The notes beneath the pieces were generated by a model. That model had not been told where the DNA came from, made no database searches, and saw nothing but the letters and a program-made list of their open reading frames with translations. Made by a program: the position numbers and the translations under genes. From Gracilaria vermiculophylla (taxonomy: Eukaryota > Rhodophyta > Florideophyceae > Gracilariales > Gracilariaceae), in NCBI GenBank assembly GCA_019155205.2, contig JAHNZQ020000308.1, positions 4,033,858 to 4,097,857 of the forward strand: a DNA stretch of 64,000 nucleotides, written 5' to 3'. This document shows positions 47,241 to 50,849 of the stretch, piece after piece; positions within the stretch are counted from its first letter, which is position 1, and each line of letters begins with the position of its first letter.

Positions 47241-49550
47241 TTATTGTATACGTCTCGCAACGGTTAGCCCATCACGGAAGGGTATGAGAACCTGCTCTAT
47301 TCTGTTTTCTTCATTAATGTACTTATTGAAAACGTGCAATTTCTCTGCGGTGCGCCTAACTCTGAAGTTGCTCTGTCCTCGGCAGTCGTTTCCTTGAGAT
47401 TCAGGAACGATGTACGAGGTTTCTGCGTTCCACACATCTGCAACCTCCCCTCGGAAAAGAACGTTGTCGAAGACGAGCAACCCCCCGATTCGCACCAGTC
47501 CGTAATCCAGTAGGTTTTTGGCGTAGTCGCGATACCCCCCTTTATTGGCATCAACGAAGGCAAAATCAAACGGTTCTGTGTTTTCAGCGCGAAACCGTTC
47601 CAAAATGTCAAGGGCGTCTCCACGACACATCCGAATTTTGCCCCGACATTCGCTATTCTTTGTAAACAGTTCCTCGGCAACAGATGCTGCTTGTTCATCA
47701 ATCTCGCACGTGATCACTATCCCGTCTTCTGGCACTCCTGACGCCATTGCTATTGTTGCGAATCCGGTAAAGCTGCCGATTTCCAACACTCGCTTCGCCC
47801 CTGATATCGTAACAAGCATACGGAGTAGCGATGCTTGCGCGTTTGAGCTCATCATTCGTATTCTCTCTGGAAATCTTGTTTCGGTCCGTCGTTTCAACTC
47901 GGCGTGCTCTGGTACAGCAGGGGTGGAGAAGATTTCAGCGTATAGCTCCGAGTTATGCAATCGCGGGGATATACCGCTCGGAACTTCTTCCACCTGCTCC
48001 AACGAGTTACTCAATGCACTGAGGCATGTAGGTGAACATGCACCTTTCATTAGCGCAGCACAGTTCGCACATTGGACAAAGATGCGTGAATCGAATGGAC
48101 GAGGACAATGCACATTTGCACAATCCGTCTGGAAATTGCATGGGTGACCGCAAGTTGTGCATCTGTCAAGCAAATCCGTCGTGATAATTTCTCCCATTCG
48201 ACCATCAAACACATGGTTCACGCCTTTGAAAGTCGACTCGTCCAAACGCCCAGTCTCTCTTAGAGTGCGAGCGTATGACACTATTCCTCCTTGAAGACGC
48301 CCAGTGTTTGAAAAGCCCATCTCTTGTTCAAGAAACGCATTGACTTTCACACATCGGATGCCGCCTGTACAGTACGTCAAGATTCTTTTGCTTCGGTCTT
48401 CGTGGCTTAACCGCTTCTCCAGTTCTTTCCAAGAATCTCGAAAAGTCGACGTGTTCAACAGTTCAGCTCCTTCGAAACGTCCGACGTCGCTCTCATAATC
48501 ATTACGACAGTCAAGTAAAATGAAATCCTCCGCTTTAGATTTTAGAAGCTGGTGCCATTCTTCAGCGGATATCGGCTGTCCAGCGCGTTCCCAATCCAAT
48601 GGTTTTTGAAACCCGTCTGCGAGAATCTTTTCCCGAGGCTTCACTCGCAGCTTTTGAAAAGGCTGGTCATGCTTTTTCACCAAGTTGTCGAAATTCAAGA
48701 AGACACCAACAACTTCTTTTGGGACGATCGCTTCACCACGTTCCATCCAGGCGCCACTCATGGCATCGCGAAAATCTTCTAAGACAGAATGGGGAACAGC
48801 CAGTTGCGCGTTGATACCCTCAGTCCCGACATACACTCTCCCCTTCACGCCTAACCACGACCACACCCTACGCAAAACATGGCTGAATGCTTCAGGCCTT
48901 TCAATATTCACAAACTTGTAAAAGCTTACCATGTTCAGTTGTTCACTAGGATTTTGTTCTGCTATCTGTGCCTTGGCTTTCACTCTCTCGACCCTCTTTG
49001 AAAGCGGTTGCTTCGGGGCTGGGGTATTGTGAGGTATGACTTCGACAAACACAGGCGAGCCGACATTTTCACACTTCTTGATCCCGCGTTTTAGACTCCC
49101 AACGTCTTCAGTCACATCACTACCCCCAACTTTTATATCAAACGCATCAGAATCACGAAGAAGACCGCGCTCTTCAAGCTCTGGAAAAATGTGCACCAAT
49201 CGCGACCTGACGCGCCCTCTAAATACATTGACATCGTTAAGATCGGAATGTTCAAGAAACACCTTTACTCTGGCAAGTTTGGGTGTTAGGGAGCACCTTT
49301 CCCGTACAAACGGAGGTAGGGCAACAATAGCGCCAATAAGATCACCTGATCGTTCTTCCAGTTCGTTTTTTAGTGCTTTGTGTGCATTCAAGCGCGCTAA
49401 TGCCGTTTCCCTCCTTCGATCTCTTGCACGTTGCTTCGGAGCGCCCGAATTGTGCTGCGCGCATGCTCGTATCAGAACGCGGCTGGATCTTGATCGAAGC
49501 AATGAGCTACTTCCAAGTAGAACACGCCCGGGCACGAACAACGCTCCCAT
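47241..49550 (-). CDS. TrhO-type rhodanese (tRNA U34 hydroxylase) fused to COMT-family O-methyltransferase (TrmR-like)
   Basis: 769 residues, single exon. Residues 1-~40 (MGALFVPGRVLLGSSSLLRS) look like a plastid presequence. Residues ~85-172 are a small unassigned domain. Residues ~207-510 are the UPF0176/TrhO unit: MVSFYKFVNI, VKGRVYVGTEGINAQLAVP, the rhodanese core DFILLDCRNDYESDVGRFEG, and the active loop LTYCTGGIRC (Cys394), then a Cys-rich part (CTTC, C471, C477, C482, CANC, C505, C509). Residues ~530-769 are a class I SAM methyltransferase of the caffeoyl-CoA OMT family: VLEIGSFTGFAT (589-599), FDFAFVDANKGGY (metal Asp667), GGLLVFDNVLFRGEV. TrhO makes ho5U34 in tRNA; bacterial TrmR, of this same family, methylates it to mo5U34. 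The two steps thus sit in one chain. Divergent from RbfA. Confidence 0.9.
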   Translation of the reverse strand: MGALFVPGRVLLGSSSLLRSRSSRVLIRACAQHNSGAPKQRARDRRRETALARLNAHKALKNELEERSGDLIGAIVALPPFVRERCSLTPKLARVKVFLEHSDLNDVNVFRGRVRSRLVHIFPELEERGLLRDSDAFDIKVGGSDVTEDVGSLKRGIKKCENVGSPVFVEVIPHNTPAPKQPLSKRVERVKAKAQIAEQNPSEQLNMVSFYKFVNIERPEAFSHVLRRVWSWLGVKGRVYVGTEGINAQLAVPHSVLEDFRDAMSGAWMERGEAIVPKEVVGVFLNFDNLVKKHDQPFQKLRVKPREKILADGFQKPLDWERAGQPISAEEWHQLLKSKAEDFILLDCRNDYESDVGRFEGAELLNTSTFRDSWKELEKRLSHEDRSKRILTYCTGGIRCVKVNAFLEQEMGFSNTGRLQGGIVSYARTLRETGRLDESTFKGVNHVFDGRMGEIITTDLLDRCTTCGHPCNFQTDCANVHCPRPFDSRIFVQCANCAALMKGACSPTCLSALSNSLEQVEEVPSGISPRLHNSELYAEIFSTPAVPEHAELKRRTETRFPERIRMMSSNAQASLLRMLVTISGAKRVLEIGSFTGFATIAMASGVPEDGIVITCEIDEQAASVAEELFTKNSECRGKIRMCRGDALDILERFRAENTEPFDFAFVDANKGGYRDYAKNLLDYGLVRIGGLLVFDNVLFRGEVADVWNAETSYIVPESQGNDCRGQSNFRVRRTAEKLHVFNKYINEENRIEQVLIPFRDGLTVARRIQ

Positions 49551-49736
49551 CGGTTAACAGCGAGTGGAGCTGGCACTATAGTGCTCACGAGCCCGCTGAG
49601 ACAAGTTCTTCAATCCCTGGGAGCATGAAATGATGCAAAGTAGCAGTTCTCATGTGCATCCACGTCGTCGAGGAATCGGGAAAGCATCACGCTTAATTAC
49701 CGCTCACCCGCCCAAGACTTACTTCTCCAGAGGAAA

Positions 49737-50849
49737 ATGCCACCGTCCGTTGACCCATCTGTCTTCTTTGGAAACATCGATTTTCTGGTGAATTGTCTGA
49801 AATTGGGCGACCGGAGATCAAGTGCCATCATTGACAGAACCTTCATAAAATCAGTTCGCTGTGCTCCTGTACCTCCCAGGAGCTCTGCAAGGCAATTATT
49901 GGCGTCTGTGTCTTCTGCATTTCGCCAGTTCGCTCAGTTTGAAAAGCTCGCAAACTTGTGCGGAAGATTAGTCGCCAAAACAGCTGAGTTTGAGATTAAG
50001 GAAGCGGATACGCCTGTGACAACACTCGACTCAGCACTCGCAATGGAGGCTCTCGCTTTCGCTTCAGGCATGGCAGTCATGCAAGGGTTTAGTTCTCTTA
50101 GGAGTTCTTTTACTCAGAATTGTACGGTGCACCATAGTTCTCGCTCTCAAGTCCATCGCACAAAGCTGCGAAGGTGTGATATTTACTGCCGTCGAGGATC
50201 GAAGCATCGAGATCGACGTTTTGGAGATGGACGAAGATCAAATCGTGTATCAGAGCTGGTAAAGCGAGAGATCTCCGCCCTGATTGACGATGGCTATAGA
50301 CGTGCGTTTTTCCACGACAAGAGTGCAGGTCCCTTACTACTGAGCGTCGTTGACGTTCGATGCTCAGATGACTTAAGACATGCGCGCGTGCAAGTTTCAA
50401 TAATGGGGAGCACTGAACAGAAGGATAACACCATGAAGTGGCTTCGCGGCGCAAGAAAAGGACTACGTGGAGATTTGGCGCGTCGAGTTTACCTAAAACA
50501 TACTCCTGAGCTGATGTTTGAAGAAAGCCAAATGGCAGAAGCAGTGAATACGGTGAACATTATAAACGAGATTGCCGCAGAGAATGAAAGAAAGCGTGAA
50601 ATGGCTGACTTTAGTCGAGGAAGCCAGACCAAAGACCTCTACGAGAATGATCTATTCGACAAAGAGCTTGAGCTTGACGCTTCGCTAGATGATGCAATTA
50701 TTGCTGATGACATGGAAGATTATGACGATTCAGGGCTTGTCATAGACGTTGAAGACGCAGACGAAGACGAGGAATGTGATGAAAGCCATGACAAAGATAT
50801 CCCTCGTAGGACACAGAGGGATATGAGCCGAGAAAATCTTATGAGATAG
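49737..50849 (+). CDS. rbfA: Ribosome-binding factor A (RbfA), plastid type
   Basis: The frame is open from 49737 (370 residues), but a better start may be Met 50043 (268 residues), which gives a presequence MEALAFASGMAVMQGFSSLR; the first 102 residues show no homology I recognise. The RbfA KH-like domain is at about residues 175-290: RSNRVSELVKREISALI, LLSVVDVRCSDDLRHARVQV, LRGDLARRVYLKHTPELMFE. The C-terminal ~70 residues are strongly acidic. RbfA binds the 30S subunit and helps mature the 16S rRNA 5' end. It is divergent with the TrhO-methyltransferase fusion, 186 bp away, so both translation-related plastid genes may share a promoter. Confidence 0.85.
   Translation: MPPSVDPSVFFGNIDFLVNCLKLGDRRSSAIIDRTFIKSVRCAPVPPRSSARQLLASVSSAFRQFAQFEKLANLCGRLVAKTAEFEIKEADTPVTTLDSALAMEALAFASGMAVMQGFSSLRSSFTQNCTVHHSSRSQVHRTKLRRCDIYCRRGSKHRDRRFGDGRRSNRVSELVKREISALIDDGYRRAFFHDKSAGPLLLSVVDVRCSDDLRHARVQVSIMGSTEQKDNTMKWLRGARKGLRGDLARRVYLKHTPELMFEESQMAEAVNTVNIINEIAAENERKREMADFSRGSQTKDLYENDLFDKELELDASLDDAIIADDMEDYDDSGLVIDVEDADEDEECDESHDKDIPRRTQRDMSRENLMR

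What the first reader, a model, noticed from the sequence alone, without database searches (positions are those of the whole stretch)
47241..49550. One polypeptide joins both enzymes of a two-step wobble-uridine pathway (TrhO + TrmR-like), apparently plastid-targeted
Seen: an uninterrupted 769-codon frame with a presequence-like start, a TrhO/UPF0176 rhodanese unit with TYCTGGIRC, a Cys-rich stretch, then a COMT-family methyltransferase with LEIGSFTGFAT and FVDANK. Established: TrhO hydroxylates U34 of tRNA to ho5U, and Bacillus TrmR, from this methyltransferase family, converts ho5U to mo5U. Inference: the alga makes 5-methoxyuridine at plastid tRNA wobble positions by a fused, channelled enzyme. 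I know of no described TrhO-methyltransferase fusion. The neighbour RbfA is also a plastid translation factor.
Basis: partly seen in the sequence, partly recalled or inferred. Interest (0 to 1): 0.92.

Follow-up and report, generated by a model that had tools for sequence, protein, structure and literature searches.

The report
Red-algal fused tRNA wobble-uridine enzyme
A red-alga gene joins, in one protein, an enzyme that adds an oxygen to a key tRNA letter and one that probably caps it with a methyl group; the same joined protein occurs in many algae with red-type chloroplasts, so it may explain an unidentified chloroplast tRNA modification.

Summary
The frame is real: 769 codons, 47241-49550, minus strand. 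It encodes a targeting-like N-terminus, a beta-grasp domain without a Pfam match, a full TrhO unit and a COMT-fold methyltransferase. TrhO membership is firm: NCBIfam equivalog above cut-off, and the six residues reported to matter in E. coli are kept. The fusion is not local: 139 of 162 listed relatives hold both halves, among them red algae from Gracilaria to Cyanidiococcus, ochrophytes, Vitrella and Eimeria. Nor is it undescribed: Sakai et al. 2019 report it in a sentence and a legend for two Phytophthora species and Phaeodactylum.

The methyltransferase is not shown to be a TrmR orthologue, but joining it to the SynOMT/SAR11 clade is rejected (p-AU 0.018), joining it to TrmR is not (0.24). 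Support for ho5U methylation: a methyltransferase gene lies directly before trhO in 14 of 14 SAR11 loci; a basic residue beside the likely metal ligands is common to the fusions and TrmR, though 3tr6 has it too; this genome shows no CmoB or TrhP family match. Plastid targeting is likely, not proven.

A review calls the U34 modification of several chloroplast tRNAs unidentified; 5-methoxyuridine made by this enzyme is a testable candidate, at least for red-type plastids.

The parts
47241..49550 (-). whole 769-codon gene for the TrhO-methyltransferase fusion, no intron
   Evidence: the ORF listing; full-length relatives
49443..49550 (-). residues 1-36, targeting-like N-terminus (MGALFVPG..., Phe at position 5)
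   Evidence: pLDDT under 50 in the model; F near the N-terminus as in own PsbO and 3 LHC-family proteins; motif discussed in PMC2222254 (passages)
49026..49340 (-). residues 71-175, beta-grasp (PB1/ubiquitin-like) domain, no Pfam match
48624..48935 (-). UPF0176_N domain of TrhO, residues 206-309
   Evidence: Pfam PF17773, 63.5 bits
48633..48641 (-). K304-P-R306, equivalents of E. coli TrhO K112 and R114
   Evidence: alignment with E. coli TrhO; mutant data in PMC6599085 (passages)
48270..48566 (-). rhodanese domain, residues 329-427
   Evidence: Pfam PF00581
48351..48371 (-). active-site loop CTGGIRC, residues 394-400
   Evidence: equals E. coli C200-C206; loop present in 137 of 139 fusions
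48024..48227 (-). Cys-rich Rhodanese_C, residues 442-509
   Evidence: Pfam PF12368; 8 nearly invariant Cys
47247..47903 (-). COMT-fold methyltransferase, residues 550-768
   Evidence: Pfam PF01596, 163.7 bits
47760..47786 (-). LEIGSFTGF (SAM-binding motif by family knowledge), residues 589-597
   Evidence: translation
47541..47570 (-). FDFAFVDANK with the likely metal ligand D667 and K670
   Evidence: translation; nearly invariant
47448..47468 (-). DNVLFRG: likely metal ligands D695-N696 and the basic residue R700, also basic in TrmR 5zw3 and 8k1f
49551..49736 (.). 186-bp gap shared with the divergent RBFA-domain gene
49737..50849 (+). neighbouring ORF with an RbfA domain
   Evidence: Pfam PF02033, 70.5 bits

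Best explanation
The gene encodes a nuclear, organelle-imported bifunctional tRNA-modifying enzyme. Its TrhO half uses O2 to convert U34 of four-codon-box tRNAs to 5-hydroxyuridine (inferred from family membership and conserved tested residues). Its methyltransferase half then uses SAM and a divalent metal to make 5-methoxyuridine, mo5U (inferred). The most likely compartment is the plastid (inferred from the N-terminus and the lineages that carry it). The beta-grasp domain probably mediates assembly or substrate contact (guess).
For: TrhO half: NCBIfam equivalog above cut-off; 37% identity, 192 bits to E. coli TrhO; C200, T201, G203, R205, K112, R114 all kept; top fold match is B. subtilis TrhO with tRNA-Ala. 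Methyltransferase half: likely SAM and metal residues nearly invariant; K or R after DNxL[FW] in 131 of 141 fusion methyltransferases (this one and the 140 rows of P0001-0162 with a stretch of 170 residues or more) against 2 of 80 bacterial loci, and in 3 of 4 TrmR or TrmR-like structures. Linkage: in 14 of 14 Pelagibacteraceae loci (13 distinct methyltransferase sequences) a methyltransferase gene lies directly before trhO; in L055, the one read in detail, the order is gatB-methyltransferase-trhO with a 1-base overlap and the methyltransferase is PF01596. Elimination: no PF08003 (CmoB) and no PF01136 (TrhP) match in this genome, though both families ring in the E. coli and Synechococcus controls; the only other PF01596 protein found is fused to a dehydroquinate-synthase domain. 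Lineage: named carriers are red algae, ochrophytes, Vitrella and Eimeria, which have red-derived plastids (recalled). Plastid: F[VI] start like own PsbO and 3 LHC-family proteins.
Against: No enzyme activity or mo5U was measured. The methyltransferase scores lower to TrmR than to 3tr6, 3cbg and CCoAOMT, and TrmR forms its own 100/99 clade. The basic residue is no clean mark: 3tr6, of the SynOMT clade and the best sequence match, has R there, TrmR-like 3ntv has H, the close relative P0002 (Gracilaria domingensis) has H and both Eimeria rows have L. The SAR11 methyltransferases beside trhO sit in the SynOMT clade and lack it, so they are not the same lineage. A second, stand-alone gene of this genome also scores above the TrhO cut-off (201 bits), so the fusion need not be the only ho5U source. 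Sakai's Phytophthora carriers have no plastid (recalled), and several unnamed non-red fusions have mitochondrion-like starts by eye. 22 of 52 rows (this protein and P0001-51) lack the relaxed F motif, in part because the models are truncated. The one mitochondrial control has an F near its likely start too. Per passages, mass spectrometry found no xo5U in the green alga Chlamydomonas, and tRNA-Thr(UGU) has unmodified U34 in the organelles sequenced (PMC3499367).
Confidence: 0.6

Rival explanations
1. Same chemistry, different place: the enzyme works in the mitochondrion, or in both organelles.
For: The fusion is reported from Phytophthora, which has no plastid (recalled). Several non-red fusions start like mitochondrial proteins by eye (P0055, P0058, P0077, P0084, P0086). 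The part of the mitochondrial genome read also has U34 tRNAs for Ala, Pro, Ser, Leu and Gly, so tRNA sets do not separate the organelles.
Against: This protein starts MGALFVPG like own plastid-protein controls; 20 of 52 rows (this protein plus P0001-51) have F[AVIL]P within residues 2-12 against a background of 0.0023 per 11-mer; 25 of 84 fusions outside that set start with a signal-peptide-like stretch by a crude rule, against 2 of 51 inside it, fitting complex-plastid import.
Confidence: 0.2
2. The methyltransferase half acts on a small molecule (catechol-like or a mycosporine precursor) and is unrelated to the tRNA step.
For: Closest solved relatives by score are 3tr6, 3cbg and other OMTs including CCoAOMT; 3tr6 shares the basic residue.
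Against: Grouping with the SynOMT/SAR11 clade is rejected, p-AU 0.018; the clade with the own MysB-like enzyme excludes the fusions at 98/97; long-term retention of the fusion across red-plastid lineages. CCoAOMT and COMT were not in the tree.
Confidence: 0.12
3. The methyltransferase half no longer methylates and mainly helps tRNA binding or stability; the product stays ho5U.
For: In Tribonema (P0098) and the unnamed P0099 the C-terminal half is kept in length but gives no methyltransferase match; Eimeria rows have DAEK and lack the basic residue.
Against: In this protein and most relatives aligned the likely SAM and metal residues are nearly invariant (77 of 83 rows tested).
Confidence: 0.06
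4. Gene-model artefact: two genes read as one.
For: No RNA-seq of this species was available.
Against: One open frame without a stop or intron; full-length relatives include transcript-derived ones (P0003, P0042, P0043, P0066, P0074); TrhO precedes the methyltransferase in 148 of 148 rows with both matches.
Confidence: 0.01

Closest known systems
TrhO-TrmR fusion of Phytophthora sojae, P. ramorum and Phaeodactylum tricornutum (Sakai et al. 2019, PMC6599085)
   Same: TrhO and a COMT-family methyltransferase in one gene (section 8 and its legend read).
   Different: There a comparative-genomics clue, the species called bacterial; no red algae, plastid ('plastid' and 'chloroplast' do not occur in the text) or beta-grasp domain in what was read. 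No row labelled with those species was among the listed hits, so identity was not compared.
E. coli / B. subtilis TrhO (tRNA U34 hydroxylase)
   Same: The six residues reported to matter, fold, NCBIfam equivalog.
   Different: Stand-alone in E. coli; here fused and with an N-terminal extension.
B. subtilis TrmR (YrrM)
   Same: COMT fold, metal residues, basic residue after DNxLF, sister position not rejected.
   Different: Outside the TrmR clade, weaker score than to other COMT-fold enzymes, longer loop after DN.
SAR11 methyltransferase-trhO gene pair
   Same: A PF01596 methyltransferase tied to TrhO.
   Different: Two genes; the methyltransferase is of the SynOMT clade.

Membership tests
TrhO (tRNA U34 hydroxylase) | score above the curated NCBIfam equivalog cut-off | tested here: met
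   181.5 bits against 170
TrhO (tRNA U34 hydroxylase) | residues reported to matter in E. coli: C200, T201, G203, R205, K112, R114 | tested here: met
   C394, T395, G397, R399, K304, R306
TrhO (tRNA U34 hydroxylase) | O2-dependent ho5U34 formation | not testable with these tools
   needs assay
TrmR (ho5U methyltransferase) | position inside the TrmR clade | tested here: not met
   the four TrmR or TrmR-like rows form a clade of their own, 100/99; fusions plus TrmR as one side is not rejected, p-AU 0.24, so TrmR as sister stays open
TrmR (ho5U methyltransferase) | COMT fold with likely metal ligands D, D, N | tested here: met
   D667, D695, N696 nearly invariant; fold
TrmR (ho5U methyltransferase) | basic residue after DNxL[FW] (empirical: 3 of 4 TrmR or TrmR-like structures; not exclusive, 3tr6 has it) | tested here: met
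   R700 here; 131 of 141 fusions
TrmR (ho5U methyltransferase) | methylation of ho5U34 in tRNA | not testable with these tools
   needs assay
SynOMT-type O-methyltransferase (3cbg, 3tr6, SafC) | position in that clade | tested here: not met
   excluded at 98/97; joining rejected, p-AU 0.018
caffeoyl-CoA O-methyltransferase / COMT | position in that clade | not tested
   no such row in the trees; scores 88 bits (1sui) and 36 bits (COMT) against 110 for 3tr6 and 58 for TrmR
MysB (mycosporine O-methyltransferase) | grouping with the own MysA-MysB-like protein | tested here: not met
   own copy falls inside the bacterial clade, apart from fusions
PB1 / ubiquitin-like domain (residues 71-175) | fold match well above unrelated rows | tested here: inconclusive
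red-algal plastid-imported protein | Phe motif close to the N-terminus | tested here: met
   F5 here; own PsbO F5 and three LHC-family proteins F4, F4, F4, counted from the likely start; specificity against mitochondria not established

The most novel reading that the evidence does not exclude
Plastids of red algae and of the lineages that took plastids from them (ochrophytes, chromerids, coccidia) make 5-methoxyuridine at the wobble position with one ancestral two-step enzyme, whose methyltransferase evolved apart from Bacillus TrmR; this, or an unfused counterpart, is the unidentified U34 modification of chloroplast four-codon-box tRNAs. SAR11 would be a separate case, with a SynOMT-type ho5U methyltransferase.
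Probability: 0.4. Interest if true: 0.78.

Novelty: new variant of a known kind. Interest (0 to 1): 0.6.

Why it matters
[quoted passage not shown] A fused hydroxylase-methyltransferase kept across red-type plastid lineages gives a concrete candidate, mo5U, with a single gene to delete and a mass to look for. It would help explain how a compact plastid tRNA set reads whole codon boxes, and the SAR11 gene pair suggests a second kind of ho5U methyltransferase in ocean bacteria.

Tried and rejected
Considered and rejected: (1) the methyltransferase is the own MysB: the genome has a separate PF01596 protein fused to dehydroquinate-synthase domains, which falls elsewhere in the tree. (2) A bacterial fusion: a 598-codon TrhO frame in a Rhodococcus contig overlaps another long frame in its upstream part and by eye holds no methyltransferase; among listed rows whose source names an organism no bacterium appears, but many rows name none, and only 120 of 128 and 120 of 227 hits were listed. 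(3) Gene model of two genes: see rivals.

Weak or uninformative: co-occurrence with TrhO in bacteria, 32 of 50 genomes searched (50 of the 80 behind the loci; 10 of 10 Pelagibacteraceae, 22 of 40 others), does not prove linkage, and none of the other 66 loci has TrhO within the fetched flanks of up to 6 kb. tRNA sets do not tell plastid from mitochondrion. The mitochondrial N-terminus control (citrate synthase, compartment assumed) was unclear. Whether all fusions form one clade: without TrmR they lie, with 8 other rows, on one side of a 98% branch; with TrmR added they are not recovered as a clade (12 of 21 join the bacterial clade at 93/93), while one clade is not rejected, p-AU 0.126. The program warned of long branches (TrmR 8k1f) and two unfused eukaryotic rows (Amorphochlora P0166, fungal P0176) also lay outside the bacterial clade. 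The AU tests were named after the tree was seen. The beta-grasp domain has no clear closest family. The phage and plasmid collections gave only partial matches or other OMTs. Paper searches: TrhO with plastid gave 0 papers; 5-methoxyuridine with chloroplast and wobble gave 4; some searches gave listings; passages were read from PMC6599085, PMC10298058, PMC7694415, PMC10531406, PMC6543040, PMC2222254, PMC8877259, PMC8394491 and PMC3499367, and one whole section of the first. The TrmR paper (Ryu 2018) is not held, so TrmR's tRNA contacts were not checked.

Full report
Observation. The frame at 47241-49550 is on the minus strand, runs from ATG to stop over 769 codons and has no intron. The longest stop-free frame in 500 base shuffles of the 3-kb region was 316 codons. 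Pfam places UPF0176_N, Rhodanese, Rhodanese_C and Methyltransf_3 in this order. The window lies in a 44.8-Mb assembly of 27 contigs; two nearby ORFs are histones, so it is eukaryotic. The closest named relatives are Agarophyton chilense (73% over residues 150-769), Gracilaria domingensis (71%) and Gracilariopsis chorda (63%).

TrhO half. NCBIfam calls it the TrhO equivalog, 181.5 bits against 170. It is 37% identical to E. coli TrhO over 329 positions, 192 bits. Sakai et al. found C200, T201, G203 and R205 essential, G202 and C206 not, and K112A and R114A failing or nearly failing (PMC6599085, passages). The six that matter are kept here. In seven other fusions aligned, the loop residues and R114 are kept in all seven; K112 is K in one and R in six. 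The loop is found in 137 of 139 fusions. This genome has a second, stand-alone TrhO gene, 201 bits in the same model, 26% identical to this half, with R and C where E. coli has K112 and R114. So the fusion need not be the only source of ho5U in the cell.

Methyltransferase half. It is a COMT-fold enzyme. The best solved matches by sequence are 3tr6 and 3cbg (110 and 98 bits), with CCoAOMT 1sui at 88 and TrmR at 58; a profile of seven fusions gives 181, 173 and about 103 bits for 3tr6, 3cbg and TrmR. In a 112-row tree, 28 fusion rows and 8 other rows, at least one of which (P0183) carries a Rhodanese_C domain, lie on one side of a branch with 98% SH-aLRT. With four TrmR or TrmR-like structures added (57 rows), TrmR forms its own clade (100/99); 30 rows with 3cbg, 3tr6, SafC, SAR11, the own MysB-like protein and Bacteroidota form another (98/97); the fusions lie outside both, unresolved, 12 of 21 of them joining the bacterial clade at 93/93. 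Plant CCoAOMT and animal COMT were not in the trees. AU tests: fusions as one clade not rejected (p 0.126); fusions with TrmR on one side not rejected (p 0.24); fusions with the SynOMT/SAR11 clade rejected (p 0.018). After the likely metal ligands DN, K or R stands before the next G in 131 of 141 fusion methyltransferases, 2 of 80 bacterial loci, 16 of 120 rows of the methyltransferase search, and 3 of 4 TrmR or TrmR-like structures; but also in 3tr6, and not in Gracilaria P0002 or Eimeria. It is a suggestive, not a clean, mark, and its role was not tested.

Linkage to TrhO outside the fusion. The scan of bacterial genomes with the methyltransferase profile returned 80 loci. In 14 of 14 Pelagibacteraceae loci (13 distinct methyltransferase sequences) a TrhO frame follows directly on the same strand; in 0 of the other 66 does it lie within the fetched flanks. 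In L055, the one read in detail, the order is gatB, methyltransferase, trhO, the last two overlapping by one base (gatB named by eye); that TrhO scores 267.6 bits in the equivalog model and the methyltransferase 204.6 bits in PF01596. These methyltransferases belong to the SynOMT clade, so they support the pairing of functions, not common descent with the fused half.

By elimination. This genome has no six-frame match to PF08003 (CmoB) or PF01136 (TrhP family), both found in the E. coli and Synechococcus controls. Two PF17773 and two PF01596 genes were found; the second PF01596 gene is fused to dehydroquinate-synthase domains and looks like the mycosporine MysA-MysB fusion (name recalled). So the cmo5U branch is not seen here, and the fused methyltransferase is the obvious candidate for capping ho5U.

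Distribution. Searches list 162 different relatives; 139 of 162 hold more than 60% of both profiles, and in 148 of 148 with both matches TrhO comes first. Named ones are Agarophyton, Gracilaria, Gracilariopsis, Chondrus, Porphyridium, Rhodosorus, Pyropia, Cyanidiococcus, Phaeothamnion, Triparma, Ochromonadaceae, several diatoms, Vitrella and Eimeria; one row carries an Alexandrium sample label. Many rows name no organism. P0003, P0042, P0043, P0066 and P0074 come from transcript collections, which argues for one transcript. Tribonema P0098 and the unnamed P0099 keep the length of the second half but give no methyltransferase match.

Location. The N-terminus MGALFVPG resembles those of own PsbO (F at 5) and the three best of ten LHC-family matches (F at 4), counted from the likely start. 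A paper on cyanelle import describes the N-terminal Phe requirement and notes the similar motif in Porphyra precursors (PMC2222254, passages). Strict F[AVIL]P within residues 2-12 occurs in 20 of 52 rows (this protein and P0001-51, most of them unnamed and taken as red by similarity), against a background of 0.0023 per 11-mer; a relaxed motif occurs in 30 of 52; the 22 misses include truncated models and some that look genuine. Of 84 fusions outside that set starting with Met, 25 begin with a signal-peptide-like stretch by a crude rule, against 2 of 51 inside it, as expected for complex plastids; some of the 84 are truncated models and one is the red alga Cyanidiococcus. Against: Phytophthora carriers, mitochondrion-like starts in several rows by eye, and an unclear mitochondrial control.

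tRNAs. In the 210 kb read of contig C17, which holds a plastid and a mitochondrial stretch (taken as this alga's) with three N gaps, 28 plastid tRNAs were found, with Ala-UGC and Leu-UAG the only ones seen for their boxes, and both GNN and UNN tRNAs for Val, Thr and Gly. The set is incomplete. The mitochondrial part also has U34 tRNAs.

Known and new. Sakai et al. 2019 state that yceA is fused with trmR in Phytophthora sojae, P. ramorum and Phaeodactylum tricornutum (section read). So the architecture is in print; its red-plastid distribution, the extra domain, the separate methyltransferase lineage and the plastid link were not seen in the searches made. A review says chloroplast U34 of several four-codon-box tRNAs is modified in an unidentified way, while Gly and Leu(CUN) are plain, and that no xo5U was found in Chlamydomonas (PMC8877259, passages); another paper gives plain U34 for tRNA-Thr(UGU) in organelles (PMC3499367, passages). 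A coconut survey lists two TrhO homologues, one predicted for the chloroplast and one for the nucleus (PMC10298058, passages). The best reading is a plastid mo5U synthase, confidence 0.6.

Noticed in passing
L055:4401-7439 (and 13 other Pelagibacteraceae loci): SAR11 bacteria carry a PF01596 methyltransferase directly before trhO, in L055 behind gatB: a likely ho5U methyltransferase of the SynOMT clade.
   Followed up: partly
L003:1-2073: Dehydroquinate-synthase domains fused to an O-methyltransferase in the same genome, probably the red-algal mycosporine MysA-MysB fusion.
   Followed up: partly
L002:1468-2409: A second, stand-alone TrhO gene (313 aa, 201 bits in the equivalog model), with R and C at the positions of E. 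coli K112 and R114.
   Followed up: partly
window 49026-49340: A folded beta-grasp domain without any Pfam match before the TrhO unit.
   Followed up: partly
P0098 (Tribonema minus), P0099: The second half is kept in length but no longer matches a methyltransferase profile, as if it had decayed.
   Followed up: partly
P0166 (Amorphochlora amoebiformis): A stand-alone PF01596 methyltransferase with the DNVLFRG motif in an alga with a green-derived plastid (recalled); it too lies outside the bacterial clade.
   Followed up: no
window 49737-50849: The divergent RBFA-domain ORF may really start at an internal Met (MAVMQGFSSLRSSF...), which looks like a plastid presequence.
   Followed up: no
G000 contigs C2, C19, C20 and C17:3.02-3.23 Mb: Four rbcL-bearing places, plus plastid and mitochondrial sequence inside the 5-Mb contig C17: the assembly seems to hold other organisms' organelles and a scaffolding error.
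   Followed up: partly
L118: A record deposited as an Enterococcus phage looks like a bacterial chromosome contig and carries a methyltransferase closest to TrmR.
   Followed up: no
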